Source: a virus. Taken from it: a DNA stretch of 23,936 nucleotides. The notes beneath the pieces were generated by a model that saw only the letters and a list, made by a program, of their open reading frames with translations, made no database searches and was not told the origin of the DNA. This document shows, piece after piece, positions 3,783 to 23,883 of the stretch. The number at the start of each line of letters is the position of its first letter. Position 1 is the first letter of the stretch. A program made the translations under genes and the position numbers. The stretch spans positions 1-23,936 of the IMG/VR virus record IMGVR_UViG_3300046028_000466. One strand, written 5' to 3'.

Positions 3783-4426
3783 CAACAATTAACGCGGTAA
3801 CTGGTTATCAAATTAACCATGCGGAATTTGTAAAACTAACCGTTGGTAATGCGGGAACGGTTTACACATTCTGCAACGCCGCCGCACCTATCACGGTTGG
3901 CGGAATCACCTTTTCAAACCTTGGCGCATTGTTATCCGTTGGCGATGTTCAACGCGACATTAAGGCTACATCGGATGACATGACAATCCAATTGACGGGC
4001 ATCAATCCAAGTAATGTTGCATTGATTCTTAGTAGCGACATTAAAGGTTCGTTGGTGGAAGTATGGCGCGGGTTTTTTGATTCAAACAATCAAATCATTA
4101 CTACGCCTACAACGCAATTCTTTAAACGCTACCAAGGCATTATTAACAGCGTTTCAATTACTGAAGATTTCAATACTGATGCGCGTACACGGATTGCAAC
4201 TTGTTCTATTTCTTGTTCATCGATGCGCCGCATTTTGGAAAACAGATTGTCGGGCGTAAAAACTAATCAAAACAATTGGCAATTTATTTATGCGGGCGAT
4301 ACATCAATGAACCGCGTAAGTGAAATTTCTAATACGTTTTTTGACTTTGGTTCGCCACCAAAAACACAAACACAAGCAAGCGAAACTACAGTAACAGATA
4401 ATTCAGCAGGTGACGCATCCCCATGA
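3779..4426 (+). CDS. Minor tail protein (DUF2163-like hub / gpL-like position)
   Basis: A 215-residue protein whose N-terminus (residues 5-80: HAEFVKLTVG, then GGITFSNLGALLSVGD) resembles DUF2163-type tail-hub proteins of gene transfer agents and siphophages, in which a YxF(C/T)N... turn is followed by a GI-x-F-x-N-x-G beta strand. The middle (GSLVEVWRGFFD, then YQGIINSVSITED) fits the usual strand pattern of hub domains. Three Cys residues cluster near 170-180 (ATCSISCSSM), but I see no CxxC pairs typical of the Fe-S version found in lambda gpL. The C-terminus is Thr/Ser-rich and ends abruptly where it meets the acetyltransferase start (ATGA). Tail-tip hub is the best guess. Confidence 0.6.
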   Translation: MTTINAVTGYQINHAEFVKLTVGNAGTVYTFCNAAAPITVGGITFSNLGALLSVGDVQRDIKATSDDMTIQLTGINPSNVALILSSDIKGSLVEVWRGFFDSNNQIITTPTTQFFKRYQGIINSVSITEDFNTDARTRIATCSISCSSMRRILENRLSGVKTNQNNWQFIYAGDTSMNRVSEISNTFFDFGSPPKTQTQASETTVTDNSAGDASP

Positions 4427-4869
4427 TAAGACAAGCGACAAGATACGACATCCCTAGACTGTTAGAAATCGTGGAGGCTTACGCCTATGAAAACCCAATT
4501 AAAAAACTTGGTCAATCGCATAATCACTTTCCCCGCTATGTTGAAGAACTATTGTTTAGCATCATTCAAGGGCGTGGGTTCATTTTTGTGGATTCGCATT
4601 TGCGCGGTGCGATTGTCGCTTACAAAACTTCGAACATTTGGTCGCCAAAAGTAAAAGAGTTAAACGAACTATTGTGGTGGGTTGAACCTGAATATCGCAA
4701 TGGTACGGTTGGCGGTAGGCTTTGGAAAGCATTTGATGAACGCGCAAATGCAATGCTAAACATGGGTGAAGTAGATATTATTTGTACATCAATTTCGGCT
4801 AATGGGCCATTGATTGATTACACGCGCCGCGGCTATAAGCCATTGGGCGCAACTTTTGTTAGGGAATAA
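4423..4869 (+). CDS. GNAT-family-like N-acetyltransferase in the tail module
   Basis: A 148-residue protein of the usual single-domain GNAT length. It opens MIRQATRYDIPRLLEI, the typical first strand and helix of GNATs, followed by a strand with GAIVAYKTS and the core WWVEPEYRNGTVGGRLWKAF near residues 85-104. The acetyl-CoA loop is slightly degenerate (RNGTVGG instead of R-G-x-G-x-G), a variant I associate with phage GNATs. The C-terminal YTRRGYKPLGATFVRE also fits (GF/GY-K-P turn). GNATs transfer an acetyl group from acetyl-CoA to an amine; the substrate here is unknown. Its place between the hub and the tip protein is striking, since it is unlikely to be structural. It could modify a virion or host protein. 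Confidence 0.75.
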   Translation: MIRQATRYDIPRLLEIVEAYAYENPIKKLGQSHNHFPRYVEELLFSIIQGRGFIFVDSHLRGAIVAYKTSNIWSPKVKELNELLWWVEPEYRNGTVGGRLWKAFDERANAMLNMGEVDIICTSISANGPLIDYTRRGYKPLGATFVRE

Positions 4870-4871
4870 AA

Positions 4872-7800
4872 ATGGTTGCAACTTTAATTGCGGGCTTAGA
4901 AGTAATTGGCTTTTCAACAGCAATGGCAACATTTGCCGTTAACTTTGCTGTTTCCTATGTTGTTACCCGTGCGTTTGCTGACAACCCCGAACAACAACAA
5001 GACATGGGCGTAAGGCAACAAGTACCGCCAAGCGCAGTTAACGCAATTCCTATTGTGTACGGCAACGCGTACATGGGCGGCACATTTGTTGATGCGGTTC
5101 TGACAACCGACCAAAAGACAATGTACTATGTGTTGGCTATTTCAAGTATTAGCCCTAATGGTCAATTTACTTTTGATACCGCCGATATGTACTACGGCGA
5201 TAGAAAAGTAACTTTTGATGGTACAGATTTAACCAAAGTTGTTAGCCTAACTGATGAAGCGGGCAATGTAGATACAAAGATTAGCGGCAACCTTTACATC
5301 AATCTTTATACATCTACAGCGGGCGGCACAATCACATCCGCAAACGGCGCATCAGCACCTAGCACCGTAATGGGTGGTTCTGACATTGCAAGCGCACAAC
5401 GATGGACAGGCACACGCCAAATGAATGGTTTGGGCTTTGCTATTGTCAAACTTGTTTACAACCGCGATGCAGATACAACCCAACTGCAACCAATTACATT
5501 TAAAGTAGCCCATACACTTAACGGAACGGGTGTAGCCAAAGCGGGTGATGTTTGGTATGACTACATCACCAATTCAGTTTATGGCGGCGCAGTAGATGCG
5601 GCGTTTGTTAACAGTTCAAGTGCAACAGCGTTAAACACTTACGGCGACCAAAACATAACATTTACAAACAGTAGCGGCGTACCATCTACGCAACCTCGTT
5701 ACCGTATTAACGGCGTATTGGATGCAGGGCAATCGGTTCTTTCTAACATTGACCGCATCATGTCATCGTGCGATTCATGGATGACGTACAACGCGGCATT
5801 GGGTCAATGGTCGGTGGTTATTAACAAAGCCGAAACAACAGCCTATGCGTTTGATGATGACAACATCATTGGCGAAATTCGCGTTAGCGCAACTGACATT
5901 ACAAGTTCAATTAACCAAGTTGAAGCGCGTTTCCCATTCAAAGAAAACCGCGACCAAGCCGCATTTGTAAACATTGAAACACCTAGCGGTTTACTGTATC
6001 CCAACGAACCCGTTAACAAGTATTCTATTACTTACGACATGGTTAACGATTCCGTGCAAGCGCATTACCTTGCTAATCGTTTGTTGGAACAAGCACGCGA
6101 AGATTTGATTGTAGGTTTCAGCACAACTTACTACGGCATCCAAGTTGATGCGGGCGATGTTGTTAGCGTCACCAATGCCGACTACGGATGGAACGCAAAA
6201 CTTTTCCGCGTGATGAAGGTTAACGAAGCGTCATTGCCTGATGGAAATTTAGGTGCGCGTTTAGAACTTAGCGAATACAACGCACAAGTTTATGATGACC
6301 AAGACATAACGCAATTTACGCCCGTGCCAAATAGTAATTTGGCATCGCCCGTTTACTTTTCAGCATTAACAGCGCCTACGGTTACAGCATCACGCCCATC
6401 GGATGCCGTGCCTAGTTTTGATGTGCAAGTATCAATACCCGCAACGGGTCGCGTAACTTTTGGCACTTTGTTTTATACATCTACGCCCGCTGATTCAACA
6501 AGTTGGAAAGTTCTTAACACCGCAACATCGCCTAACAATGTACCCGTAGCAAATGGCACTACTTACACATTTGCCAATCAAGTATTGCCCGCGGGAACTT
6601 TCTACTTTACCTACACGGTTGGAAACGAAATTGCATCATCGCAAAAAAGTTCTAACAGTTCTGCATTTGTTTGGTCGCCAACAGGAACGGCGGGAACAGC
6701 GGGCATTAGTTTTATAACTGCTTATAAGGTTCAAAGCCAATCAAGCGCCACACCCACATTTACAACGCCCACAAGCGGCGCTACAGCCCCTACAGGTTGG
6801 ACATTAACAGCGCCTACCGTTTCGGTTGGTCAAGTAATGTGGTACATCCAAGGTCAATACAACAGCAACGCGGTTACTGTAAATAGCGTTCCCGCAAATA
6901 GCACGGCATGGACAGGGCCAGTAGCGGCAAGCATTTTTCAAGACATTCGTTCTGACAACTGGAACGGTTCAACACCGCCTACATACGGAACACCCGCAAC
7001 ATACGGAACGCAAGGCTATTACATTCAGCAATCTACAGGCGATGTATTTTTTAACAACGGTATTTTTAGGGGCAACTTAATTGGCGCTAGTAACATTGAA
7101 ATTACTGGTTCTGCCAAGTTTAATGGTGCGGTTACAACTATTGCGGGAACTGCCGCGGTTACAGCCAATGTAACTTTTGCCCAAAAATACGGCATCATTG
7201 CATTTGCTGATAACGCACCTTACAACCCCGTTATTGAAGCCGCGGGCGTTTATGGTTATGGCGATAACAATGCGTTTGGTGTACGCGGTGTATCTTTTGG
7301 TTCGGGTGGTACAGGCGTGTTTGGTAGCGGGCCATTCGCGGGCATCGAAGGCAACGCAAGCGGAACAAGTGGCGTAGGCGTTAAAGGTTACGGTAACGGT
7401 TCTGCGGGCGTTGGTGTATTTGGTTTATCCAATGGTTCGGGTGCGGGTGTTTATGGCATTTCCGCGAGTGGCCCTGCCGTTTGGTGTAACGGCCCTTTTA
7501 AATGGGATGCCTATACATTTGCAGTACCTACAGGCTCAGTAACCGATGTGTTGCGCGGTAACGGAACTTGGGGCGCGGTATCTATTACAAGTTCAACCGT
7601 TACAACGGCTTTGGGCTATACGCCGTTATCAACAACGGGTCAAGCCTACGATACCGCCCGAATGGATGGCTATACCGCTTCATCATGGGCGCGTATTTTC
7701 CCTTGCAACAGCGGAACAGCAAATGCCGCGGGTTCAGGAATTAACATTTTAGGTTCAAGCACTACAGGCATTGTTAACGCGTATGTAGGAACAACTGGTT

Positions 7801-8156
7801 CGGGTAACACCGTTACTTTAGATGTTCGTACAACAAGCCCATCGGATGTAAGACTAAAAGAAGAAATTACAGATTGTGATTTAGGCTTGGCATTTGTTAA
7901 ACAATTGCGCCCCGTTTCTTACAAACTTATTGCCGACCCTAAACACCAAAAAGGTTACGGCTTAATTGCTGATGAAGTAGAAGATATTATTCCGCTTGGG
8001 TCATCTTTGGTTTACGAAGAACCTGATTGGAAAGTTGGCGATGAAGTTGGTTTTAAAACAATTCACTATCCATCGTATGTAGCGGTTTTAATTAAAGCCG
8101 TACAAGAACTTTCAGCACAAGTTGAAGAATTGAAAAAACAGATTCCCAAGATTTAA
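4872..8156 (+). CDS. Tail tip / receptor-binding protein with C-terminal S74 chaperone
   Basis: A 1094-residue protein combining a tail-tip base with a fibre. Residues 1-40 are hydrophobic and followed by the ADNPEQQQD segment usual in such tip proteins. Around 345-480 there is a Phage-tail_3-like domain (VDAGDVVSVTNADYGW, then ARLELSEYNAQVYDD). Residues 490-760 look like Ig/fibronectin-type and beta-rich modules including the conserved SIFQDIRSDNWNGS stretch. About 787-873 is a Gly-rich GxxGVxG repeat block. The end is a peptidase S74 intramolecular chaperone: PSDVRLKEE places the cleavage Ser at residue 991 and the partner Lys at 996, so about 104 residues should be released after trimer folding. 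A short coiled coil (VQELSAQVEELKKQI) ends it. Confidence 0.85.
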   Translation: MVATLIAGLEVIGFSTAMATFAVNFAVSYVVTRAFADNPEQQQDMGVRQQVPPSAVNAIPIVYGNAYMGGTFVDAVLTTDQKTMYYVLAISSISPNGQFTFDTADMYYGDRKVTFDGTDLTKVVSLTDEAGNVDTKISGNLYINLYTSTAGGTITSANGASAPSTVMGGSDIASAQRWTGTRQMNGLGFAIVKLVYNRDADTTQLQPITFKVAHTLNGTGVAKAGDVWYDYITNSVYGGAVDAAFVNSSSATALNTYGDQNITFTNSSGVPSTQPRYRINGVLDAGQSVLSNIDRIMSSCDSWMTYNAALGQWSVVINKAETTAYAFDDDNIIGEIRVSATDITSSINQVEARFPFKENRDQAAFVNIETPSGLLYPNEPVNKYSITYDMVNDSVQAHYLANRLLEQAREDLIVGFSTTYYGIQVDAGDVVSVTNADYGWNAKLFRVMKVNEASLPDGNLGARLELSEYNAQVYDDQDITQFTPVPNSNLASPVYFSALTAPTVTASRPSDAVPSFDVQVSIPATGRVTFGTLFYTSTPADSTSWKVLNTATSPNNVPVANGTTYTFANQVLPAGTFYFTYTVGNEIASSQKSSNSSAFVWSPTGTAGTAGISFITAYKVQSQSSATPTFTTPTSGATAPTGWTLTAPTVSVGQVMWYIQGQYNSNAVTVNSVPANSTAWTGPVAASIFQDIRSDNWNGSTPPTYGTPATYGTQGYYIQQSTGDVFFNNGIFRGNLIGASNIEITGSAKFNGAVTTIAGTAAVTANVTFAQKYGIIAFADNAPYNPVIEAAGVYGYGDNNAFGVRGVSFGSGGTGVFGSGPFAGIEGNASGTSGVGVKGYGNGSAGVGVFGLSNGSGAGVYGISASGPAVWCNGPFKWDAYTFAVPTGSVTDVLRGNGTWGAVSITSSTVTTALGYTPLSTTGQAYDTARMDGYTASSWARIFPCNSGTANAAGSGINILGSSTTGIVNAYVGTTGSGNTVTLDVRTTSPSDVRLKEEITDCDLGLAFVKQLRPVSYKLIADPKHQKGYGLIADEVEDIIPLGSSLVYEEPDWKVGDEVGFKTIHYPSYVAVLIKAVQELSAQVEELKKQIPKI

Positions 8157-8731: not shown

Positions 8732-11700
8732 ATGTCAAATATTAAAGTTACCGTTCAGAACGAAAACAATGTTCTGTTAGAAGTTACGCCCGTACCAATT
8801 CAAACAATTGCGATTAGCCGCGGTGTAGCGGGTCGGGGCGTAGCGGATGTTACTGCCGTTGAAATTGATAACGCGCTTTATCTTGAATTTACGTTTACTG
8901 ATGGCACAACGGAATTGGTTGGACCTGTCGGTACGATTCAATACATTGGTCAAGCGCCAATCGTTGTTACTGGTTCTACCATCAGTTTAAGCACCGTACC
9001 CGTTAACTTAGGCGGCACGGGCGCAACTACTGCAAGCGGTGCGCGTACCAACTTGGGTTTGGGTACGATTGCCACACAAAACGCAAATGCAGTTTCTATT
9101 ACTGGTGGCACTATCACGGGCATTACCGACTTAGCGGTTGCCGATGGTGGTACAGGCGCAAGCACCGCGGCGGGTGCAATGGTTAACTTGTTGCCATCAT
9201 ATACAGGCAATGCAAATAAACGCCTTTCTTTAGATGGCACGGCTACAGGCTTAGAATGGGTAACTGATGGTGGCGGTACGGTTACATCGGTTGATGTATC
9301 AGGAGGCACTACAGGTTTGTCGTTCACGGGTGGCCCTATCACCACAAGCGGCACAATCACATTAAGCGGTACATTGGATGTTGATAACGGCGGTACAGGC
9401 GCTACAACTGCGGCGGGTGCAAGAACTAACCTTAACGCCGCCGACCAAGCCTTAACGCTAACCGCGGGTACTGGTTTATCAGGTGGTGGCGACCTTACGG
9501 CAAACCGTAGTTTTAGCATTGCCAACACAACTGTTACTGCGGGCGCATACGGCGCGGCATCTAAAACGCTAACAGCAACGGTAAATGCACAAGGTCAATT
9601 GACCGCTTTAGCCGATACGCCTATTGCTATTGCCAACACCCAAATTTCGGGTTTAGGCACAATGTCAACGCAAGATGCTAATTCGGTTGCGATTACAGGC
9701 GGTTCAATTACAGGCATCACAGATTTGGCGGTTGCTGATGGTGGCACGGGTGCTAGTGATGCTTCAGGCGCACGAACTAACTTGGGCGCGGCGGCATCGG
9801 CAATTACGATTAGCGCGGGTACAGGTCTATCGGGCGGCGGTGATTTAACTGCTAACCGTACTTTGTTTATCGCTAACACCGCGGTTACTGCGGGCGCGTA
9901 TGGTTCTGCATCAGATACGCTAACTGCTACAGTAAATGCGCAAGGTCAACTAACAGCATTGGCGGCAACACCGATTGCAATTTCAAATACTCAGGTTAGC
10001 GGCTTGGGTACTATGTCAACGCAAAATTCTAATTCCGTAACTATTACGGGTGGAAGCATCACAGGAATCACCGACCTTGCCATTGCAGACGGTGGTACAG
10101 GGGCTTCAAACGCCGCTGATGCGCGTTCTAACCTTGGCTTGGGTACTGCGGCAGTATTGAACGCGGGCGTTGCCTTGGGCGTTGCTACGCTAGATGCGGG
10201 CGGTACTGTACCTTTGTCGCAAATCCCTGCAAGTATTCAAGGCGGCGTAAGTTACCAAGGCGCATGGAACGCATCCACAAACACGCCTACGCTAACTTCT
10301 AGCGTTGGTACAAAAGGGCATTACTATGTTGTTTCCGTTGCGGGTAACACAAACCTGAACGGCGTAACTGATTGGTTAGTTGGCGATTGGGCAATCTACA
10401 ACGGTACAGCATGGGAAAAAATCGATAACACCGACCAAGTGGCAAGCGTCAACGGCTACACGGGCGTTGTTGTTCTGACCAATACTGATGTTGGTGCGCC
10501 ATCTACTAGCCTAACAATCAGCGCGGGAACGGGTTTAACTGGTGGTGGCAACCTAACTACTAACCGTACCATTTCAATCGCTAATACAGCGGTTACGGCG
10601 GCTTCTTACGGTACTGCAAGCGCAGTTCCTACATTCACAGTAAATGGTCAAGGTCAACTAACCGCCGCCGCCGATGTAAACATTGCGATTACAAACACGC
10701 AAGTTTCAGGGCTTGGCACTATGTCAACCCAAAACGCCAACAGCGTGACAATCACGGGCGGTAGCATTACGGGCATTACCGATTTGGCAATTGCCGATGG
10801 CGGTACGGGTGCAAGCAATGCCGCTGATGCGCGTACAAACCTTGGTGTAACTGCTACTGGCGGTGACACAACTTATCTTTTCCGTGCAAACAATCTTTCT
10901 GATTTGGCAAGCGCATCTACTGCCCGAACTAACTTAGGTTTGGGTACAGCGGCTACGCAAGACAGCACAGCGTTTGCTACAGCGGCACAAGGTGCAAAAG
11001 CCGATACAGCAATTCAAACAGTTACATCAACCGATGGTTCTATTGTTGTTACGCCTACAGGAACTACAATTGATTTGGCGGTGTCTGCGGCATCCCCTGC
11101 TTCTACTTTGTTAACGCAAGTTCGTAACACTACGGGCGCGACTTTAACCAAGGGTACTGTTGTTTATATCTCAGGCGCTACGGGTCAGATTTCAACCGTA
11201 TCAAAAGCGATTGCAACAGGCGACACTACATCGGCTCAAACCTTGGGCATGATTACCGCTGACTTGGCAAACAATACAAACGGTTATGTAACTGTTTTTG
11301 GTTTGATTACCAACATTGATACATCGTCTTATACCGATGGCGCACAACTGTATCTAAGCGGCACTACAGCGGGTGCGGTAACAACTACAAAGCCATCAGC
11401 ACCAATTCATTTGGTTTATGTTGGTATTGTTGAATATGCACACCCAACGCAAGGCAAGATTCTTGTTAAAGTTCAAAATGGATATGAACTTGATGAAATC
11501 CATGATGTATCAATTGTTAGCCCCGTAACAGGACAAACACTTGTTTACAACTCTAGTACCGATTTATGGGTTAACAACACCGTATCTTTGACTGCGGGTG
11601 TTAACGGTACATTGCCTATTGCTAATGGTGGTACAGGGCAAACAACGGCTAACGCGGCGTTCAATGCTTTAGCACCTAGCCAAACAGGTAATAGCGGCAA

Positions 11701-14257
11701 GTATCTAACAACCGATGGTACGGATACATCTTGGGCATCAAACCCATTGGGTACAGTAACTAGCGTTGCGGCAAGTGTTCCATCATTCTTGTCTATTGCG
11801 GGTTCACCCATCACGACAAGCGGCACATTAGCAATTAGTTTGTCGGGTACTGCATTGCCTACAACATCGGGCGGCACAGGCTTGACATCATTTACATCAG
11901 GCGGTGTTGTTTACGCATCTAGTTCTAGTGCATTGGCTACTGGTAGTGCGCTTACTTTTGATGGGACTACGCTAACTTCTACACAGTCCGTTGCGTTTTC
12001 ATCAAATGCTATTTTTAACCAAACAGCATCTGTTGGTGGTGTTGCGGCTATTAAAGTGCAAAGCAATACAGCGTCTATTGATTTAATGTCTGGTGGCGTT
12101 ACTTATGCCACCAACTATATGGGTGCAGATGAAGCAGGCTTGATTACTCAAGGCGCTGATGGGATGCGTTTCAATATAGGCGGTTCTTACGCTAGATGGA
12201 CATTTATAGGCTCTGAAGCCATGCGCCTCACCTCAACAGGGTTGGGTGTTGGTACAAGTTCGCCTCAATCAAAACTACATATCTCAGGTGCAAACGTATC
12301 TGGCTATGGACAACTGAGAGTTAATGCAACCGATACAGCACAGATGACGCTATCGGTAGCAGAAACAAACTATGCAAATATGTATGCCGATACCACTCAA
12401 CTGGTATTTGGCACAACAGCGGCTATTCCAATTCTTTTTAGAACTAACTCAACTGAGCGTATGAGGCTTGACTCATCAGGCAATCTAGGCTTGGGAGTTA
12501 CTCCGAGTTCGTGGACTGGTGTAGGTGTTGCTTTTGAAACACTTGGCGGTGCAATAATTGGACAGGGTAATAACAACATTAGTTATTTCCAAAATACTTA
12601 CTATGCTTCTGCCGCTTTTAGGTACAAAACAACAAACCCTGCTTCTTTTTACGAACAATCCTCTGGTAAACACGTTTGGTACAACGCCCCATCAGGCACA
12701 GCAGGAAACGCTATCACCTTTACTCAGGCGATGACTCTGGATGCAAGTGGAAATTTGGGTGTGGGGACTACAAGCCCACAATCGCTAGGCGCTGGATACC
12801 AAACAATAACTGTGAACGGAACCACAGGTAGCGGTTTTGTAATGAAATCCAATAATAGCAATCGAGGCTATTTATGGACTGATGGTTCTTCTTACCAAGT
12901 TTTTGGTATTGGTGCTTATCCAATGGTTTTTAGCACTAACAGCACAGAGCGTATGCGCCTTGATTCTTCAGGAAATCTAGGTATTGGTACAACTTCGCCC
13001 GCAACATATTTACAAGTAGCATCAAAAACTGCTGGAGATTCTCCAACAATCCGCATTTCAAATGACACAACTGCAACAGGGTCGGCCACATTAAGTCTTT
13101 ACAGAAACGCAAGCGACAATGCATCTGTAATCCACAATCCGGCTGGTCTAAGAAAAACATTACAATTTCTTGCTACGCACCCATCCAGCGTGGGTATGCT
13201 TTGGAGTACTAGCGATGGTACGACAACAACAGATAGGATGACCCTCGACTCCTCAGGCAATCTAGGCTTGGCAATTACTCCCCATGCTTGGGGTGGTGGT
13301 TACAAAACCATTGACAATCAAATATACAACTCAATGTACTCCAATAATGGAGGTTTTGCGGGGATGGCGTGTAACGCCTACAACGATGGTACAAATTGGA
13401 TTTATAAAATTACCACTACTGCAAATCGTTTTGAAAGCACATTAAATTCTTTTAGATGGTTTACAGCCCCATCAGGCACAGCAGGAACTGCTATCTCCTT
13501 TACTCAGGCGATGACTCTGGATGCAAGTGGTCGCCTTGGTATTGGCACTACATCACCAGCCTGTAAATTAAATGTTGATGGCACAGGTGAACTATTAAGG
13601 CTTTCTGGCACAACGCCATTCATGCAATGGTTTGGCAGTAGTGCTTGTTACATCGGTGATGCTAGTCAATTAGTTAGTGGAACTGCTGGTGACTTTGTAA
13701 TTAGGGTTGGTAATTCCAACACTAATAATCTTATATTTGCAACTGGCACAACACAACGAGCCAGAATAGACACTAACGGAAACTTGCTAGTTGGGGCTAC
13801 AAGTGTTGTTGGTTCATCAGTATCTGGTTTGGCATTGCGGAATGGTGGAACAAGTGGAAATTTGTTGAGTGCAGTAAGTTCTACTTCTTCTGTTGACCAC
13901 ATGATTTTCTACAACCCCAATGGAACTTGTGGAACTCTTTACACAACTGGCACATCATTTGGTTTGTATAACGCATCAGATGCTCGTTTAAAGCAGAACA
14001 TTTCTACAGCAGATAATGCTTCTGTGTTGATTGACGCTATCCAAGTTCGTAAATTTGATTGGAAAGTAAATGGAGAGCATCAGCGTTATGGATTTATAGC
14101 GCAAGAACTTGCCACAGTATTCCCCGAAGCAGTTAAACAGCCAGAAAATCCTGACGAAATGATGGGCGTGGATTACGCCAAGTTAGTTCCAATGCTCGTC
14201 AAGGCTATTCAAGAACTCAAAGCAGAATTCGATGCCTACAAAGCATCACACCCTTAA
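8732..14257 (+). CDS. Large modular tail fibre with C-terminal S74 chaperone
   Basis: An 1841-residue fibre, RBS AAGGGG (8721-8726). Residues 1-90 form the likely attachment region. Residues 100-710 are repeat modules built on GGTGA(S/T) and ITGGSITGITDLA(V/I)ADGG motifs; three long copies start near residues 244, 361 and 597. Between copies two and three lies a different module (about 473-596, containing VGDWAIYNGTAWEKIDN). Residues 790-920 form another conserved fibre module (TKGTVVYISGATGQ). From about 1160 to 1690 there are seven ERMRLDSSGNLGIGTTSP-type repeats. The S74 domain begins at ASDARLK, giving cleavage Ser 1749 and Lys 1754, so the last 93 residues are probably released. Base use changes near residue 1120. 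It is the most probable host-range determinant with the tip protein. Confidence 0.9.
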   Translation: MSNIKVTVQNENNVLLEVTPVPIQTIAISRGVAGRGVADVTAVEIDNALYLEFTFTDGTTELVGPVGTIQYIGQAPIVVTGSTISLSTVPVNLGGTGATTASGARTNLGLGTIATQNANAVSITGGTITGITDLAVADGGTGASTAAGAMVNLLPSYTGNANKRLSLDGTATGLEWVTDGGGTVTSVDVSGGTTGLSFTGGPITTSGTITLSGTLDVDNGGTGATTAAGARTNLNAADQALTLTAGTGLSGGGDLTANRSFSIANTTVTAGAYGAASKTLTATVNAQGQLTALADTPIAIANTQISGLGTMSTQDANSVAITGGSITGITDLAVADGGTGASDASGARTNLGAAASAITISAGTGLSGGGDLTANRTLFIANTAVTAGAYGSASDTLTATVNAQGQLTALAATPIAISNTQVSGLGTMSTQNSNSVTITGGSITGITDLAIADGGTGASNAADARSNLGLGTAAVLNAGVALGVATLDAGGTVPLSQIPASIQGGVSYQGAWNASTNTPTLTSSVGTKGHYYVVSVAGNTNLNGVTDWLVGDWAIYNGTAWEKIDNTDQVASVNGYTGVVVLTNTDVGAPSTSLTISAGTGLTGGGNLTTNRTISIANTAVTAASYGTASAVPTFTVNGQGQLTAAADVNIAITNTQVSGLGTMSTQNANSVTITGGSITGITDLAIADGGTGASNAADARTNLGVTATGGDTTYLFRANNLSDLASASTARTNLGLGTAATQDSTAFATAAQGAKADTAIQTVTSTDGSIVVTPTGTTIDLAVSAASPASTLLTQVRNTTGATLTKGTVVYISGATGQISTVSKAIATGDTTSAQTLGMITADLANNTNGYVTVFGLITNIDTSSYTDGAQLYLSGTTAGAVTTTKPSAPIHLVYVGIVEYAHPTQGKILVKVQNGYELDEIHDVSIVSPVTGQTLVYNSSTDLWVNNTVSLTAGVNGTLPIANGGTGQTTANAAFNALAPSQTGNSGKYLTTDGTDTSWASNPLGTVTSVAASVPSFLSIAGSPITTSGTLAISLSGTALPTTSGGTGLTSFTSGGVVYASSSSALATGSALTFDGTTLTSTQSVAFSSNAIFNQTASVGGVAAIKVQSNTASIDLMSGGVTYATNYMGADEAGLITQGADGMRFNIGGSYARWTFIGSEAMRLTSTGLGVGTSSPQSKLHISGANVSGYGQLRVNATDTAQMTLSVAETNYANMYADTTQLVFGTTAAIPILFRTNSTERMRLDSSGNLGLGVTPSSWTGVGVAFETLGGAIIGQGNNNISYFQNTYYASAAFRYKTTNPASFYEQSSGKHVWYNAPSGTAGNAITFTQAMTLDASGNLGVGTTSPQSLGAGYQTITVNGTTGSGFVMKSNNSNRGYLWTDGSSYQVFGIGAYPMVFSTNSTERMRLDSSGNLGIGTTSPATYLQVASKTAGDSPTIRISNDTTATGSATLSLYRNASDNASVIHNPAGLRKTLQFLATHPSSVGMLWSTSDGTTTTDRMTLDSSGNLGLAITPHAWGGGYKTIDNQIYNSMYSNNGGFAGMACNAYNDGTNWIYKITTTANRFESTLNSFRWFTAPSGTAGTAISFTQAMTLDASGRLGIGTTSPACKLNVDGTGELLRLSGTTPFMQWFGSSACYIGDASQLVSGTAGDFVIRVGNSNTNNLIFATGTTQRARIDTNGNLLVGATSVVGSSVSGLALRNGGTSGNLLSAVSSTSSVDHMIFYNPNGTCGTLYTTGTSFGLYNASDARLKQNISTADNASVLIDAIQVRKFDWKVNGEHQRYGFIAQELATVFPEAVKQPENPDEMMGVDYAKLVPMLVKAIQELKAEFDAYKASHP
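12686..12750 (+). repeat. 65-bp near-identical direct repeat in fibre gene, copy A
   Basis: The segment from GCCCCATCAGGCACAGCAGG to ATGCAAGTGG is repeated 780 bases downstream with only three mismatches in 65. It encodes the APSGTAGxAIxFTQAMTLDASG motif in both places. Identity this high at DNA level, above that of the flanking coding repeats, points to recent duplication or gene conversion within the fibre. Confidence 0.85.
13466..13530 (+). repeat. 65-bp near-identical direct repeat in fibre gene, copy B
   Basis: Second copy of the repeat at 12686-12750. The three differences are two adjacent bases in GGAACTG versus GGAAACG and one in CTATCTCC versus CTATCACC. Recombination between the copies would delete 780 bases (260 codons) in frame. 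Confidence 0.85.
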
Positions 14258-18203: not shown

Positions 18204-18452
18204 TTAATTAAAAGGTATGTCATCCATATCATCAGGCATAGGCGCGGCTTGGCGTTGCGGTGTGCGCGGCTCAAGCGGTGGCCTAGCACTTAACCAACCA
18301 TCCCAACTAACGGGTATGTGGTCAATTTTTAAACTAATACCTTGTTGGCCTTTATCCCAAAGCGTACCAATTTTAGAAAAGCGTTTTTTGTTGTTGCCTT
18401 GGGCATCGGTGTATTCGCCGACTACCGCGATAAGGTCTAATTTAGTTGACAT
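18204..18452 (-). CDS. Small SSB-like protein with DDIPF C-terminal tail
   Basis: An 82-residue protein. The first 55 residues look like a short beta-rich domain (LDLIAVVGEYTD, then KKRFSKIGTLWDKG, LKIDHIPVSWDGWL). A Pro/Arg-rich linker follows, and the last residues are DDMDDIPFN. Bacterial SSB ends in an acidic DDDIPF tip that recruits repair and replication enzymes; here one residue (N) follows the F. The body is too short for a full OB-fold of the E. coli type. It lies beside YqaJ and ERF, fitting a role in recombination. It overlaps the exonuclease stop by 11 bases. Confidence 0.6.
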   Translation of the reverse strand: MSTKLDLIAVVGEYTDAQGNNKKRFSKIGTLWDKGQQGISLKIDHIPVSWDGWLSARPPLEPRTPQRQAAPMPDDMDDIPFN

Positions 18453-19074
18453 GGTTCAATCTTTCGTTCAGTTTAAAAATTTTTGCATCAAGTTCGGCTA
18501 AGAACTTTGTTACTTCTACTTCTAGCGTTGCCGCATATTCCGTATCAAATTCAACGCGTTTAACAAACATTTGTAACCCGTTAGGTAATCGTGGGTCGAA
18601 CGATACGAAATCACACCAAGCGCGTTTAGTACAAGCCATTTGCCATTGCATTTGTGTGATGTACTTTGTTGGCACTTGATTGCTTAACAATGTGTCAATG
18701 TGTGTAGCGGTGTTAGGGCATTTGATTTCTAACAGGCCATCAGCACCTACCAAGCCATCAGGCGAAGCCCCTGCGCGTTCAATTGATGGGTGCTGAACAT
18801 ACCCTACTTCATCAACCAAAACATCGGCTAGGGATTCATAGGCGGCACGGGCTAACGGTTCTGTTTCTGTACCCCATTGCATAGCCGCACTACTAAACGA
18901 TTCTGCAACCGTATTGGTCATGCGTTCGCAAATCAATTGCGCCATGTAGTTATCGCGTGATGCTGAATAACCGCTTTTGGTTTTGGCAATCACATCAGCA
19001 ACGCGGGATGCCGTGACATTGCCCAAGCGGGCGGCAAACCATTCGGGTGTATTTTGTTCAATCTTTTCAATCAT
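18442..19074 (-). CDS. YqaJ-like viral recombinase / lambda-type exonuclease
   Basis: A 210-residue PD-(D/E)XK nuclease of the YqaJ/lambda Exo type. Conserved parts: an N-terminal substrate-binding helix (TPEWFAARLGNVTASR, residues 9-24), the MQWGTETEPLAR motif (65-76), then GASPDGLVG with D106, and LEIKCP with E116 and K118, followed by QMQWQMACT. The enzyme resects double-stranded DNA from the 5' end to give 3' single strands. Its partner ERF is encoded immediately upstream with an ATGA overlap at 19071-19074, giving a classic two-component recombination pair. Length is normal for the family. Confidence 0.9.
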   Translation of the reverse strand: MIEKIEQNTPEWFAARLGNVTASRVADVIAKTKSGYSASRDNYMAQLICERMTNTVAESFSSAAMQWGTETEPLARAAYESLADVLVDEVGYVQHPSIERAGASPDGLVGADGLLEIKCPNTATHIDTLLSNQVPTKYITQMQWQMACTKRAWCDFVSFDPRLPNGLQMFVKRVEFDTEYAATLEVEVTKFLAELDAKIFKLNERLNHVN

Positions 19075-19619
19075 AGTTTTGCCTTTACTTTATCTTTGGC
19101 GGCAATCACTTTCTTTTGCCAATCAGAATTGCCATTGCAAGCGGCATAGGCGGCTTTGTAGGCGGCTTTCAAACCATCTTGGTCGGTTGATGCGTCTATA
19201 GCGGCTAAGTGGTCTATAAGGGCGCTTTCATCTACATTCTTTGCAGGGATAGTTGCCATTGCGCCATCGTCATCTTCAGGTGCAATACCGCAAGCCGCCA
19301 TCAACGAACCGCGGCGGGCGTAGGTCAATGCCGACATATACGCGGGCGGGTCATTTTTGACTACAGGAAATTGCAAGATGCCACATTCAAGCATTTCGCC
19401 CGATTCGTGAACAAATACAGTTTCAACCATGATGCCGCCAACACAATCGTAAGACTTTTGCACAAGGGCAATGCCGTTATTGTTTAGGGCATCTATAACC
19501 GCTTCAACACACGCGGCAAGGTCAGCGTACTTGTTTTTGAAATGCGGGTTGTAGGCGTTCTTTAAAGCGGGTGCAAATGCCTTTTGTGCTTGCACCAATG
19601 CCGTGGCGATTTGTTTCAT
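19071..19619 (-). CDS. ERF-family single-strand annealing protein
   Basis: A 182-residue protein carrying the ERF signature: NPHFKNKYADLAACVEAV (about residues 24-41), ALNNNGIALVQ, VFVHESGEMLECG, then LTYARRGSLMAACGIAPEDDDG near residues 98-119. ERF proteins anneal complementary single strands in phage recombination and repair and can support genome circularisation. It is encoded with YqaJ and the SSB-like protein in one leftward operon. The C-terminal 60 residues are Ala/Lys-rich and less conserved. The ATG at 19619 overlaps the upstream stop. Confidence 0.92.
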   Translation of the reverse strand: MKQIATALVQAQKAFAPALKNAYNPHFKNKYADLAACVEAVIDALNNNGIALVQKSYDCVGGIMVETVFVHESGEMLECGILQFPVVKNDPPAYMSALTYARRGSLMAACGIAPEDDDGAMATIPAKNVDESALIDHLAAIDASTDQDGLKAAYKAAYAACNGNSDWQKKVIAAKDKVKAKL

Positions 19620-21026: not shown

Positions 21027-21368
21027 ATGCGTTCAAAAACTACTTATGCCGAAAGGCTATTAGATTCCCGTTGGCAACAAATGCGTTTGCGTGTATTTGA
21101 ACGGGATGGATGGAAATGCGTAACTTGTGAAAAAAGCACAAAAACGCTAAATGCACATCATGTTCACTATCACCCATTAGCCGAAGGGCCGTGGGATTAC
21201 GACATAGAAACAATTATTACTTTATGTGCCGAATGTCATTCTGATGAACACATTGAATTAGATTGCGCCAAAGCAAATTTAATTCATGCCATCATTAAAA
21301 AAGGTTACAAAACTGCTTATGCGTTTGATTGTTTAACAACTTTACTTGAAACGGATGGCAATGTATGA
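21027..21368 (+). CDS. HNH endonuclease
   Basis: A 113-residue protein with RBS GGAG at 21015-21018. The HNH core is complete: RVFERDGWKCVTC (C31, C34), AHHVHYHP (H44/H45) and TLCAECHSDEH (C67, C70, H71). The C-terminal 40 residues are helical. Phage HNH proteins of this size serve in packaging, replication or as mobile nucleases. Here the gene sits between the regulator and the replication genes and overlaps the O-like gene by four bases (ATGA 21365-21368), so it is integrated in the operon and a replication- or recombination-linked nicking role is possible. Confidence 0.8.
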   Translation: MRSKTTYAERLLDSRWQQMRLRVFERDGWKCVTCEKSTKTLNAHHVHYHPLAEGPWDYDIETIITLCAECHSDEHIELDCAKANLIHAIIKKGYKTAYAFDCLTTLLETDGNV

Positions 21369-22114
21369 AACGCCCATCATTTCAATTTTACCCAAGCGAT
21401 TGGTTGCGTGATACTGCTTTGCGTTCATGTTCTACAGGCGCTAGGGGTTTGTGGATAGACATGATTTGTTTTATGCACGAAGGTTCACCTTACGGTTATT
21501 TAAAGGTTGCAGATAAGGTTATCCTACCCCCTAACCTTGCCCGTATGGTTGGCGAAACCTTAGAGGTTGTAGAAGGTTGGCTAAACGAATTGCACGAAGC
21601 AGGTGTTTACGATATTGATAATGGCGCAATTTTTTCAAGACGCATGATTCGTGATGAAGAATTAAGACAAAAGCGTGCAGAAGGTGGAAAATTAGGTGGG
21701 AATCCAAACTTGAAGGTTAACCATAAGGTTATGCAAGAGGATAAACAAAATACAACCCCTTCATCTTCATCTACATCTTCATCTTCAAATAAAAAAATAA
21801 AGACAGAGGCCATTCGGCCTATAGATATTTCTGAATCAGTTTGGGATGATTTCATAGCCATTAGAAACAAGGTCAAAAAACCTTTTACTGAAACCGCTTT
21901 GAAAATTATTCAGCGTGAAGCCCAAAAAGCAGGGTTCACATTGGAACAAGCCTTAGAAACTTGTTGCGCCCGTGGTTGGCAAGGATTTGAAGCCGCTTGG
22001 GTTCAAAAGGATTCAGATTTAAGCAAAACAGGCCAAATGAACCAAAGGGTAATTTCAGGCTTAACCCGTGGGCTAATCGGAGGTGGCGGCAATGTCAAAT
22101 TACTTGGAAACTAA
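21365..22114 (+). CDS. Replication initiator-like protein (lambda O-like position)
   Basis: A 249-residue protein. The N-terminus (RPSFQFYPSDWLRDTALRSC, then STGARGLWIDMICFMHEG, residues 3-41) is a winged-helix-type domain common in phage replisome organisers, with the RP-x-FQFYP-x-DW signature. A Ser-rich linker lies at about 132-142, and a C-terminal helical domain contains VWDDFIAIRNKVKKPFTETA (about 160-180), resembling the DNA-binding end of DnaT/O-like proteins. It probably recognises the origin and recruits the helicase through the next gene product. No iteron array is visible inside the gene. It overlaps the P-like gene by 23 bases. Confidence 0.7.
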   Translation: MKRPSFQFYPSDWLRDTALRSCSTGARGLWIDMICFMHEGSPYGYLKVADKVILPPNLARMVGETLEVVEGWLNELHEAGVYDIDNGAIFSRRMIRDEELRQKRAEGGKLGGNPNLKVNHKVMQEDKQNTTPSSSSTSSSSNKKIKTEAIRPIDISESVWDDFIAIRNKVKKPFTETALKIIQREAQKAGFTLEQALETCCARGWQGFEAAWVQKDSDLSKTGQMNQRVISGLTRGLIGGGGNVKLLGN

Positions 22115-22487
22115 TTTCTGTACCCAAGACCAAGGGCTTGATTACATATTTGGGCGAATGATGGCTATTTTTGGCGCACCATTTAATCGTCACTTTGATG
22201 GCCTAGACCCTGAATTTGTACGCGATGAATGGAAGGTTCAACTTGGCAAGTTTTTAACCTACCGCCCAAGCATGGACTTTGCCATTGCCAAACTTGATGG
22301 TGAATTTATCCCTAGCGCAATCAAGTTTCGTAATTTGTGCAACCAAGGCCCACAAATCCCAATCAAGCCATTGGTTCAAATTGAACGCAAAAAAACATTG
22401 CATGAGCAAATCGAAGCCGATAGGGTGAAAGCCGAAGCATTAACAAAACTCGCACAACTTAAAAAACACTTTGGAGATAAAGCATGA
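22092..22487 (+). CDS. Lambda P-like replicative helicase loader (short)
   Basis: A 131-residue protein. I start at ATG 22092 because GGAGG (22079-22083) lies eight bases upstream; GTG 22083 would use the RBS itself. The pattern FGRMMAIFGAPFNRHFDG, then EFVRDEWKVQLGKF, then FIPSAIKFRNLCNQGP fits phage replication protein P-like families (IFG..W/F, then WxxxL, then PPS/PS-x-x-F-x-x-L-C). Lambda P loads DnaB helicase at the O complex. It is about half the length of lambda P and lacks an ATPase Walker motif, as P does. The stop overlaps the PP-loop gene (ATGA 22484-22487). Confidence 0.6.
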   Translation: MSNYLETNFCTQDQGLDYIFGRMMAIFGAPFNRHFDGLDPEFVRDEWKVQLGKFLTYRPSMDFAIAKLDGEFIPSAIKFRNLCNQGPQIPIKPLVQIERKKTLHEQIEADRVKAEALTKLAQLKKHFGDKA

Positions 22488-23323
22488 GCAACCCATACAA
22501 AATCATTGAACCAACTTGCATTAGTTTTTCAGGCGGTCGAACTTCTGCATTTATGCTTTACAAAGTTTTGGAAGCACACGACATGACTTTGCCAAATGAT
22601 GCAATTATTTGTTTTGCTAATACTGGAAAAGAAGATGAAGCAACTTTAAAGTTTGTCCATGATATTGAAACTAAATGGAATGTTCCTATACATTGGATTG
22701 AGTACCGCAACGATGAAGTTGGTTTTGCTAAAGTTAATTATGAAACTGCTAGTAGAAATGGTGAACCCTTTGAAGAACTTATCCATAAAGTTCAATTTTT
22801 ACCAAATTCAGCAATGAGAATATGTACAACACATTTAAAAATAAGACCATTTCGTAAATATTTAGATTCAATTGGTGTTGATAGGCCAAATCAATTTGTC
22901 GGAATTAGAGCAGACGAAATGCGAAGGGTTGTAAAAATTCGCGCAAATCCTGAAGCCGAAGGAATGGAAAGGTCATTACCACTTGCAACAGATGGAGTAA
23001 CTGTTAAGGATGTTAATGATTTTTGGAATAAACAAGAATTTAATCTTGAATTGACAACATTTAATGGGAAAACTTTGGCTGGTAATTGTGACCTTTGTTA
23101 TTTAAAACCATCAGCACAAATTTTAAGTTTGATACAAGAAAAACCTGAACGAGCAATTTGGTGGGCAAAAATGGAGGCTTTAACATTAGAAAAAACTACT
23201 AATGGGAAAAATCAATTTTCAAAAGATAGACCAAGTTATGCACAAATGTTGAAATTTAGTAAAGAACAAAAGGATATGTTTGACCCTAATGAAGAAGCCA
23301 TTTCTTGTTTTTGCGGTGATTAA
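22484..23323 (+). CDS. PP-loop / PAPS reductase-like protein
   Basis: A 279-residue adenine-nucleotide alpha-hydrolase-fold protein. The PP-loop SFSGGRTSAFML (S16-S21 core) binds ATP or adenylyl sulfate. FANTGKEDEATLKFVHDIE follows, typical of phosphoadenosine phosphosulfate reductase and DndC-type proteins. Cys residues at 114 (RICTTH), 202/205 (CDLC) and 275/277 (CFCGD) could bind an Fe-S cluster. The actual chemistry may be sulfur transfer, DNA/tRNA modification or something else; the family is common in phages and mostly unassigned. The gene is clearly more AT-rich than its neighbours and uses AGA, TTA and ATA codons, a sign of recent transfer. Confidence 0.75.
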   Translation: MSNPYKIIEPTCISFSGGRTSAFMLYKVLEAHDMTLPNDAIICFANTGKEDEATLKFVHDIETKWNVPIHWIEYRNDEVGFAKVNYETASRNGEPFEELIHKVQFLPNSAMRICTTHLKIRPFRKYLDSIGVDRPNQFVGIRADEMRRVVKIRANPEAEGMERSLPLATDGVTVKDVNDFWNKQEFNLELTTFNGKTLAGNCDLCYLKPSAQILSLIQEKPERAIWWAKMEALTLEKTTNGKNQFSKDRPSYAQMLKFSKEQKDMFDPNEEAISCFCGD

Positions 23324-23446
23324 ATGACTTACGAAACAGCAATGAGAATCCTAGACAAGGTACGGGAAGGAGTGCATTACCCGCAATGGGTGATTCTCAA
23401 AGCCTTGGAACTAACTGGCGATATTGATGGACATGGAACACTTTAA
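23324..23446 (+). CDS. Small conserved phage protein, 40 aa
   Basis: A 40-residue frame starting right after the PP-loop stop: it opens MTYETAMRILDKVREGVHYP and closes QWVILKALELTGDIDGHGTL. The MRILDKVREG.....I..ALELTGD pattern is one I recognise from short helical proteins in phage replication regions. GGTGAT upstream could be its RBS. It overlaps the next frame by 20 bases. Function unknown. Confidence 0.55.
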   Translation: MTYETAMRILDKVREGVHYPQWVILKALELTGDIDGHGTL

Positions 23447-23639
23447 AGATTGCGAAGCGCGGGAATGGGTTGCGCGTTTCCGCAAAAAGCAATTAGAAGA
23501 AGGTAGGGGCGAAGCAATCGAATGGTGGAACAAAATCATTAAAGACATTGCAACCAAACGCGGGCAATCCGCCGCTGATGAATTAAAGCAAAGAATGAAT
23601 ACAGTAAAGGATAAAAATGCGATACGCCGCAAGGGTTGA
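23427..23639 (+). CDS. Small helical protein, DUF7696-like
   Basis: A 70-residue protein, start uncertain among ATG 23427, ATG 23433 and TTG 23424; none has a strong RBS. It contains CEAREWVARF and WWNKIIKDIATKRGQSAADE, resembling what I recall of the DUF7696 family (CEAR-x-W, then a helix, then KRG-x-x-AA-x-x-L). Charged and helical throughout. It overlaps the next gene by 23 bases. Role unknown. Confidence 0.5.
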   Translation: MDMEHFKDCEAREWVARFRKKQLEEGRGEAIEWWNKIIKDIATKRGQSAADELKQRMNTVKDKNAIRRKG

Positions 23640-23883
23640 TGCAAACCAAACACAAATCGTTAGTGCCTTACGCGCCGCGGGTGCTTATGTTTGGATTATT
23701 GGCATACCCGTTGACCTTTTAGTAGGCTACCGCGGGCATACATTCTTGGTAGAGATTAAAAGCACCAACAAAGGGCGGCTAACGCCCCTACAAGCCGATT
23801 TTTTTGAGAATTGGGGCGGTAGTACCCTTTCCCGCGTTGATAGCCCTGAAGCCGCACTACGAATGATTGGAGTTATTAAATGA
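23617..23883 (+). CDS. VRR-NUC / PD-(D/E)XK-like nuclease
   Basis: An 88-residue compact nuclease-like protein. After an N-terminal helix (QTQIVSALRAAGAYVWII) come PVDLLVG with D33 and FLVEIKS with E46 and K48, the D-(x)n-E-x-K core of the restriction-endonuclease fold. RLTPLQADFFENW completes the conserved Gln-containing helix. Single-domain VRR-NUC proteins of phages are thought to process branched DNA, consistent with the replication/recombination context. RBS AAGGAT precedes ATG 23617. Its stop overlaps the next start (ATGA 23880-23883). Confidence 0.75.
   Translation: MRYAARVDANQTQIVSALRAAGAYVWIIGIPVDLLVGYRGHTFLVEIKSTNKGRLTPLQADFFENWGGSTLSRVDSPEAALRMIGVIK

What the first reader, a model, noticed from the sequence alone, without database searches (positions are those of the whole stretch)
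22484..23323. AT-rich PP-loop gene with a possible Fe-S cysteine set in the replication operon
The SGGRTS loop and the Cys at 114, 202, 205 and 275/277 suggest an ATP-using sulfur-transfer or reductase-type enzyme. The base composition and codons differ strongly from the genes on both sides, yet it is joined to the P-like gene by an ATGA overlap. It could modify phage DNA or tRNA, perhaps linked to the restriction-site avoidance seen across the window, or it may take part in sulfur metabolism.
Basis: partly seen in the sequence, partly recalled or inferred. Interest (0 to 1): 0.5.

Follow-up and report, generated by a model that had tools for sequence, protein, structure and literature searches.

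The report
Phage NinC-like sulfur enzyme gene
The gene is a distant relative of phage lambda's unexplained NinC protein, built like the sulfur-handling enzyme of bacterial DNA-sulfur systems but found without that system's partner genes, so it is a known kind of phage gene whose job is still open but now easier to test.

Summary
The ORF at 22484-23323 is real: 279 aa, joined to the upstream gene by ATGA, under strong purifying selection (dN/dS 0.028 against L002). It is the most AT-rich of 28 window genes tested. The named residues are right: SGGRTS, C114, C202, C205, C275 and C277 are invariant in 65 close relatives. Over 170 sequences C114, C202 and C205 occur in all, a C-terminal Cys pair in 169. 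It belongs to phrog_424, the family of lambda NinC (profile E 3.5e-28). The nearest cellular kin tested is SspD of DNA phosphorothioation (2.8e-14, 1.6e-13); CysH is hardly detectable. The fold is the PP-loop fold, with APS/PAPS reductases ranked first. No SspB or cysteine desulfurase was found in 21 phage records. Best reading: a stand-alone sulfur transferase with a three-Cys Fe-S site and a C-terminal Cys relay, fed by host IscS; target unknown. Blanket protection of phage DNA is unlikely: the window strongly avoids restriction sites (0 GATC, 0 AGCT). It is a new member of a known, uncharacterised family, probably acquired by exchange between phages.

The parts
22484..23323 (+). NinC-like (phrog_424) PP-loop protein, 279 aa
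22529..22546 (+). PP-loop SGGRTS (residues 16-21); the Asp of canonical SGGxDS is Thr here
22823..22825 (+). C114 of the RxCTxxLK motif (putative Fe-S ligand; aligns with the second Cys of the APS-reductase CC pair)
23087..23098 (+). C202-x-x-C205 of GNCDLC (putative Fe-S ligands)
23306..23314 (+). C275-x-C277, C-terminal Cys pair in a tail modelled with pLDDT under 50
22095..22487 (+). upstream gene in the position of lambda P; no PHROG match; overlaps the next start by ATGA
   Evidence: DNA similarity of 22027-22343 to L048 just upstream of its NinC-like gene
21365..22114 (+). O-like replication initiation protein (phrog_678)
21027..21368 (+). HNH endonuclease
   Evidence: (below Pfam cut-off)
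23324..23446 (+). small ORF, 40 aa, directly downstream; homologues in 23 of 161 loci (window counted), 20 of them within 1.5 kb of the NinC-like gene
23424..23639 (+). DUF7696-like small protein (below Pfam cut-off)
23617..23883 (+). endonuclease, phrog_93 (VRR-NUC-like by recall, not by a call)

Best explanation
The gene encodes a phage NinC-family protein: a stand-alone, SspD-like PP-loop enzyme. Shown: membership of the NinC family, the PP-loop fold with APS/PAPS reductases as nearest structures (predicted model), five family-wide cysteines, no SspB and no cysteine desulfurase found in 21 phage records, and purifying selection. Inferred: the PP-loop binds ATP and activates a nucleic-acid or nucleotide oxygen with AMP; C114, C202 and C205 hold a [4Fe-4S] cluster with one open iron site, as reported for DndC (three Cys), TtuA and [4Fe-4S] LarE; the mobile C-terminal Cys pair, in the place of CysH's catalytic tail, relays sulfane sulfur from host IscS or resolves a disulfide; the product is a thiolated nucleic acid or nucleotide made during early phage replication. 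My odds for the steps: NinC-family member 0.97; three-Cys Fe-S cluster about 0.6; sulfur transfer to a nucleic acid or nucleotide about 0.4.
For: phrog_424 E 3.8e-45. Lambda NinC: BLASTP 29% over 216 aa, profile E 3.5e-28. SspD: PADLOC model 1.8e-18, profile E 2.8e-14 and 1.6e-13 for two sequences. DndC 1.3e-4 and 6.7e-8. In a 37-row tree the 29 NinC-like rows split from SspD, DndC and CysH with 97/93 support; SspD lies on their side with 90/84, below the tool's starred level. C114, C202, C205, K119, R142, D144 and E145 occur in 170 of 170 sequences, the tail pair in 169 of 170. The 80 lambda-NinC relatives kept of 150 (49 distinct) all keep the five Cys. The three SspD tails read GSCxVC. Fold: Z 13.7 to APS reductase 2goy, 12.3 to [4Fe-4S] LarE 8cp4, 11.4 to [4Fe-4S] NcsA 6scy. 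Papers, passages only: DndC has a 4Fe-4S centre held by three cysteines plus a Cys dyad thought to pass on sulfur (PMC10853773); LarE of T. maritima binds its cluster with three Cys and takes sulfur from IscS (PMC9283937); SspD forms a complex with the desulfurase SspA (PMC7188994).
Against: The PP-loop lacks the Asp of SGGxDS (residue 20 is Thr in 165, Ser in 3, gap in 2 of 170), so ATP pyrophosphatase activity is not assured. No constant neighbour that would define a pathway was found. Lambda ninC is dispensable for plaques once Q is supplied (PMC10695390). Foldseek's best matches are sulfonucleotide reductases, not transferases, and GMP synthetases and other PP-loop enzymes score only 1 to 3 Z below the top, so the fold does not tell the reaction.
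Confidence: 0.45

Rival explanations
1. Phage auxiliary sulfur metabolism: a PAPS/APS reductase (CysH-like) that boosts sulfite and cysteine supply in the infected cell, the usual database label of such genes.
For: Pfam PAPS_reduct just over cut-off (24.1 against 22.5 bits); best Foldseek matches are CysH structures; some distant members carry ECGLHC-like tails near CysH's ECGLH.
Against: E. coli CysH and a Pseudomonas APS reductase are hardly detectable by profile (E 0.073 and 0.05, probability about 1%); separate tree group; no CysH or APS-reductase model among the 3 NCBIfam matches up to E 1; PP-loop SGGRTS, not the altered loop of CysH; only one of the two tandem Cys of APS reductase is kept; the gene lies in the replication operon.
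Confidence: 0.12
2. It installs a protective phosphorothioate or other sulfur mark on phage DNA, so that the phage escapes restriction.
For: SspD/DndC-like Cys architecture; position in the replication operon; two clusters of DNA methyltransferases among the neighbours, in 9 and 2 of 93 loci.
Against: No SspB in 21 phage records (the 14 control genomes did not ring, but the model rings in 3 of 3 genomes with a true SspD) and no cysteine desulfurase, although a host desulfurase could serve. The window has 0 GATC and 0 AGCT, and this gene copy has none while its 94%-identical homologue in L002 has 3 and 2, so restriction seems still to select. For the gene alone this is weak: about 5 sites of the four motifs would be expected from its dinucleotides.
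Confidence: 0.13
3. tRNA thiolation of the TtcA/NcsA/TtuA kind, tuning host translation during infection.
For: Same PP-loop fold as [4Fe-4S] NcsA and LarE and a CxxC-plus-C pattern.
Against: No TtcA or NcsA model among the 3 NCBIfam matches; TilS_N matches weakly (E 0.02, 14.8 against a cut-off of 93.6 bits). No RNA-binding domain in the Pfam scan; residues beyond about 214 are barely tested by the fold comparison.
Confidence: 0.12
4. A counter-defence decoy: an SspD/DndC mimic that binds SspA or IscS, or the SspB-SspC complex, and blocks host phosphorothioation-based defence.
For: SspD is reported to bind SspA (PMC7188994, passages); NinC-like proteins share the SspD core while its partners were not found.
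Against: Catalytic-type residues are kept in 170 of 170 sequences, which suggests an enzyme; whether hosts carry Ssp or Dnd was not tested.
Confidence: 0.08

Closest known systems
NinC (Orf290) of phage lambda, PHROG 424
   Same: Homologous along the PP-loop domain; same five Cys (80 of 80 NinC relatives examined); downstream of replication genes O and P.
   Different: About 29% identical; lambda has ren and ninB between P and ninC; tail pair is CxxxC in lambda and CxC here.
SspD of the SspABCD phosphorothioation system
   Same: Core motifs RxCTxxLK, R[AS]DE, CxxCF and a C-terminal Cys pair.
   Different: SGGKDS loop; SspB-type DUF4007 gene about 3.3 kb away; SspD model scores 449-461 bits for true SspD against 65 here.
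DndC
   Same: PP-loop and the RWCTDRLKI motif; three-Cys cluster plus Cys dyad reported (PMC10853773).
   Different: Longer; weaker profile match (E 1.3e-4 and 6.7e-8); no DndC model match here.
CysH (APS and PAPS reductases)
   Same: Same fold (Z 13.7 to 2goy); C-terminal Cys tail.
   Different: Altered PP-loop, CC pair (APS type), ECGLH tail, separate group.
LarE, NcsA and TtuA sulfur insertases with a three-Cys [4Fe-4S]
   Same: PP-loop fold; three conserved Cys including a CxxC.
   Different: No sequence-family match; SGGxDS loop; whether a cluster is bound here is unknown.

Membership tests
NinC / PHROG 424 | Family model match over most of the protein | tested here: met
   phrog_424 E 3.8e-45, residues 2-277; lambda NinC profile E 3.5e-28
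NinC / PHROG 424 | SGGRTS-type loop, CTxxLK, GNCxxC and C-terminal Cys pair | tested here: met
NinC / PHROG 424 | Place in the replication operon after an O-like gene, as in lambda | tested here: met
   O-like phrog_678 upstream; lambda order O-P-ren-ninB-ninC
SspD | Full-length SspD model match at the level of true SspD | tested here: not met
   65 bits over 4-209 of 277 against 449-461 bits for three true SspD
SspD | SspB (DUF4007) in the same locus | tested here: not met
   0 of 21 phage records, window included; 3 of 3 true-SspD genomes ring. Several virus records may be fragments
SspD | Three core Cys and C-terminal Cys pair | tested here: met
SspD | SGGxDS loop | tested here: not met
   SGGRTS
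DndC | TIGR03183 match | tested here: not met
   not among the 3 NCBIfam matches up to E 1
CysH | Model match and clade | tested here: not met
CysH | ECGLH catalytic tail | tested here: not met
   window tail SCFCGD; but ECGLHC-like in some distant members
QueC / TtcA | Family model match | tested here: inconclusive
   neither is among the 3 NCBIfam matches up to E 1; I did not check that both models are in the library
[4Fe-4S] sulfur insertases (LarE, NcsA, TtuA) | Cluster bound by three Cys with an open iron site | not testable with these tools
   only the conservation of three Cys is shown

The most novel reading that the evidence does not exclude
The NinC family, lambda's own NinC included, is a widespread class of stand-alone phage sulfur transferases: the SspD/DndC chemistry (PP-loop, three-Cys cluster, Cys relay) uncoupled from SspB/SspC and coupled to phage replication and recombination, putting sulfur into a phage or host nucleic acid that nobody has looked for.
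Probability: 0.2. Interest if true: 0.8.

Novelty: new member of a known kind. Interest (0 to 1): 0.4.

Why it matters
I found no assigned function for lambda NinC (10 paper searches in an open-licence library, lists capped), although relatives occur in hundreds of phage records and prophage contigs. The family-wide five-Cys set, the SspD kinship and the missing SspB and desulfurase turn a vague 'PAPS reductase' label into concrete tests: iron-sulfur content, IscS sulfur transfer, thio-nucleoside mass spectrometry. They also warn that weak PADLOC SspD hits in prophages (1e-11 to 1e-15 in PMC12429752) may be NinC-like proteins (1.8e-18 here; 7.5e-15 to 3.3e-7 in four bacterial genomes) rather than phosphorothioation systems, and that counting such genes as assimilatory cysH in viromes may mislead.

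Tried and rejected
A solved relative by sequence: none (only chance-level matches). A fixed partner gene: not found; neighbours are mixed and no BLAST cluster occurs in more than 10 of 93 loci (up to three same-strand genes each side within 1.2 kb; window itself not in this set). Only 20 of the 25 listed cluster representatives were scanned; 4 of these had no PHROG match at 1e-5, the largest cluster among them. The 40-aa ORF and the DUF7696-like gene as partners: 23 and 16 of 161 loci only, on either side of the gene. AT-richness as a family trait: rejected; mean GC difference from flanks is -0.014 in 80 viral and +0.007 in 77 genome loci, none at -0.09 or below, against -0.111 in the window. 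Changes on the window branch lean to A/T only mildly (15 to 7 synonymous; 5 to 2 with the wider outgroup). SspB absence: the control rang nowhere, so one search was run. Papers: the 10 searches gave capped listings in which I saw no functional study of NinC; I opened passages of 10 papers and read none whole. PMC3349717, which names NinC once, was not opened.

Full report
Observation. The ORF 22484-23323 codes for 279 aa and begins in the stop codon of the preceding ORF. Among 65 sequences (window plus 64 of 80 IMG/VR loci; near-duplicates left out) S16-S21, C114, C202, C205, C275 and C277 are invariant. Selection is purifying: dN/dS 0.028 and 0.033 against L002 and L003, 0.069 and 0.071 against L004 and L006; dS was saturated against L007.

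Composition and origin. GC is 33.2% and GC3 18.9%, lowest of 28 genes tested. This is a trait of this copy, not of the family: L002 and L003, 94% identical in protein, have GC3 0.33 and 0.31, and across 80 viral and 77 genome loci the gene is on average close to its flanks. DNA similarity to L002 (86.7%) spans 22479-23327, almost exactly the ORF; the rest of the window has no blastn match to that contig at E 1e-5, apart from a second hit of the same gene to a paralog. L002, L003 and L164 hold two diverged copies. An exchange of the gene between phages fits; a mild A/T lean on the window branch was seen.

Family. Pfam PAPS_reduct is just above cut-off. PHROG 424 matches at 3.8e-45 and the PADLOC SspD model at 1.8e-18 over 4-209 of 277. 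NCBIfam gives nothing specific. Lambda NinC matches by BLASTP (29% over 216 aa) and by profile (E 3.5e-28). SspD follows at 2.8e-14 and 1.6e-13, DndC at 1.3e-4 and 6.7e-8, then a Pseudomonas APS reductase at 0.05 and E. coli CysH at 0.073. In a 37-row tree 29 NinC-like rows form one group (97/93) apart from three SspD, two DndC and three CysH rows; SspD lies on the NinC side (90/84, not starred). The tool flags long branches (lambda NinC, E. coli CysH; DndC meeting CysH), so fine placement is unsure. 210 phage records hold a relative at E 1e-5 or better, 61 of them over at least 80% of the query.

Cysteines. Over 170 sequences (window, 160 loci, 9 named phages; the 161 include 144 distinct) C114, C202, C205, K119, R142, D144 and E145 occur in all 170. 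A C-terminal Cys pair occurs in 169, CxC in 153; the miss, L140, gives a 434-residue frame from a match whose length is not a multiple of three, so it is probably frameshifted. C61, present in 161 of 170, is Ile in the window. The loop is SGGRTS in 161 of the 168 sequences that have it. All 80 lambda-NinC relatives examined (49 distinct) keep the five cysteines. Against APS reductase, C114 aligns with the second of two tandem Cys and C202/C205 with a CxxC; by recall those four are its cluster ligands, so three of four are kept. SspD has the same three and a C-terminal CxxC. In one branch with alpha-proteobacterial phages and a Microcystis phage the tail reads ECGLHC, ECGLWC, ECGLLC, ECGLMC, ECGSHC or ECGTYC, very like CysH's ECGLH tail, which suggests that the tail pair descends from, or mimics, CysH's catalytic tail (its catalytic role is recalled).

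Structure. AlphaFold2 gave mean pLDDT 85.3 and pTM 0.82, residues 274-279 below 50. Foldseek's best matches are CysH structures (1.4e-6), with [4Fe-4S] LarE (3.4e-5) and [4Fe-4S] NcsA (1.0e-4) below. VIA-align gives Z 13.7 to APS reductase 2goy over 179 residues (rmsd 3.6), 12.3 to LarE 8cp4, 11.4 to NcsA 6scy; GMP synthetases reach 12.3. So the fold is the PP-loop fold; it does not settle the reaction. Residues beyond about 214 are barely tested.

Context. Upstream lie an HNH nuclease, an O-like initiator and a gene in the P position; downstream are two small ORFs and a phrog_93 nuclease. In 93 of 161 loci, kept as non-redundant, the 299 neighbours are mixed. PHROG scans of 20 of 25 listed cluster representatives found RusA and RuvC-like resolvases, a phrog_93 nuclease, NinB, HNH, primosomal/O-like proteins, primase, helicase, exonuclease and DNA methyltransferases, and a second NinC-like copy; four gave nothing. 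So the gene sits in replication-recombination operons but has no fixed partner. No cysteine desulfurase and no SspB was found in the window record, 11 other virus records and 9 named phages. The SspB model rang in none of the 14 control genomes, but in 3 of 3 genomes that hold a true SspD, about 3.3 kb from it. Some of the records may be fragments.

Restriction sites. The window has 0 GATC (38 expected from dinucleotides), 0 AGCT (65), 3 CCGG (66), 6 ACGT (94) and 23 GGCC (83). The gene copy has none of the first four (about 5 expected in all) and one GGCC, while the L002 copy has 3 GATC and 2 AGCT; contigs L004 and L005, with 0 GATC of 20 expected each, also lack GATC in their copies. The gene thus follows the site avoidance of its genome. 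This is evidence against a blanket protective DNA mark made by this protein, though old avoidance could persist.

Mechanism. Papers seen as passages only: DndC is described with a [4Fe-4S] held by three cysteines and a separate Cys dyad proposed to carry sulfur (PMC10853773); T. maritima LarE uses a three-Cys [4Fe-4S] charged by IscS (PMC9283937); SspD binds the desulfurase SspA (PMC7188994). NinC-like proteins show three invariant Cys and a Cys pair. I infer a sulfur transferase fed by host IscS that acts on a nucleic acid or nucleotide. The missing PP-loop Asp is a caution. Lambda ninC is not needed for plaques once Q is supplied (PMC10695390), so the function is probably conditional. Thermus phage authors already noted PAPS-reductase homologues in lambda and other mobile elements and called for study (PMC11437467). 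A prophage survey reported PADLOC SspD hits of 1e-11 to 1e-15 (PMC12429752), near what NinC-like proteins gave here.

Verdict. New member of a known but uncharacterised family.

Noticed in passing
window 1-23936: Extreme avoidance of several 4-base palindromes: GATC 0, AGCT 0, CCGG 3, ACGT 6, GGCC 23, against 38, 65, 66, 94 and 83 expected from dinucleotides.
   Followed up: partly
L004 and L005: Both related contigs have 0 GATC of about 20 expected, while AGCT is only reduced; site avoidance differs between phages carrying close copies of this gene.
   Followed up: no
L002:5501-6340 and 7097-7909; also L003, L164: Two diverged NinC-like copies in one phage, with what reads like a RusA-type gene between them in L002 (not searched); may mean different substrates or partners.
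   Followed up: partly
window 22664-22666 (residue 61): A Cys found in 161 of 170 relatives at position 61 is Ile in the window copy.
   Followed up: no
L158, L159, L083, L181, L203-L205 gene ends: Tails such as VECGLHC resemble CysH's ECGLH motif with an added Cys.
   Followed up: partly
window 18442-19619: YqaJ exonuclease and Erf-type annealing protein side by side on the minus strand: a Red-like recombination pair.
   Followed up: no
window 4872-8156 and 8732-14257: Two large tail-region proteins each end in a Peptidase_S74 chaperone domain (Pfam, E 6.6e-11 and 5.2e-13).
   Followed up: partly
window 4423-4869: A possible GNAT acetyltransferase (Pfam E 0.0032, below cut-off) lies within the tail gene block.
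   Followed up: partly
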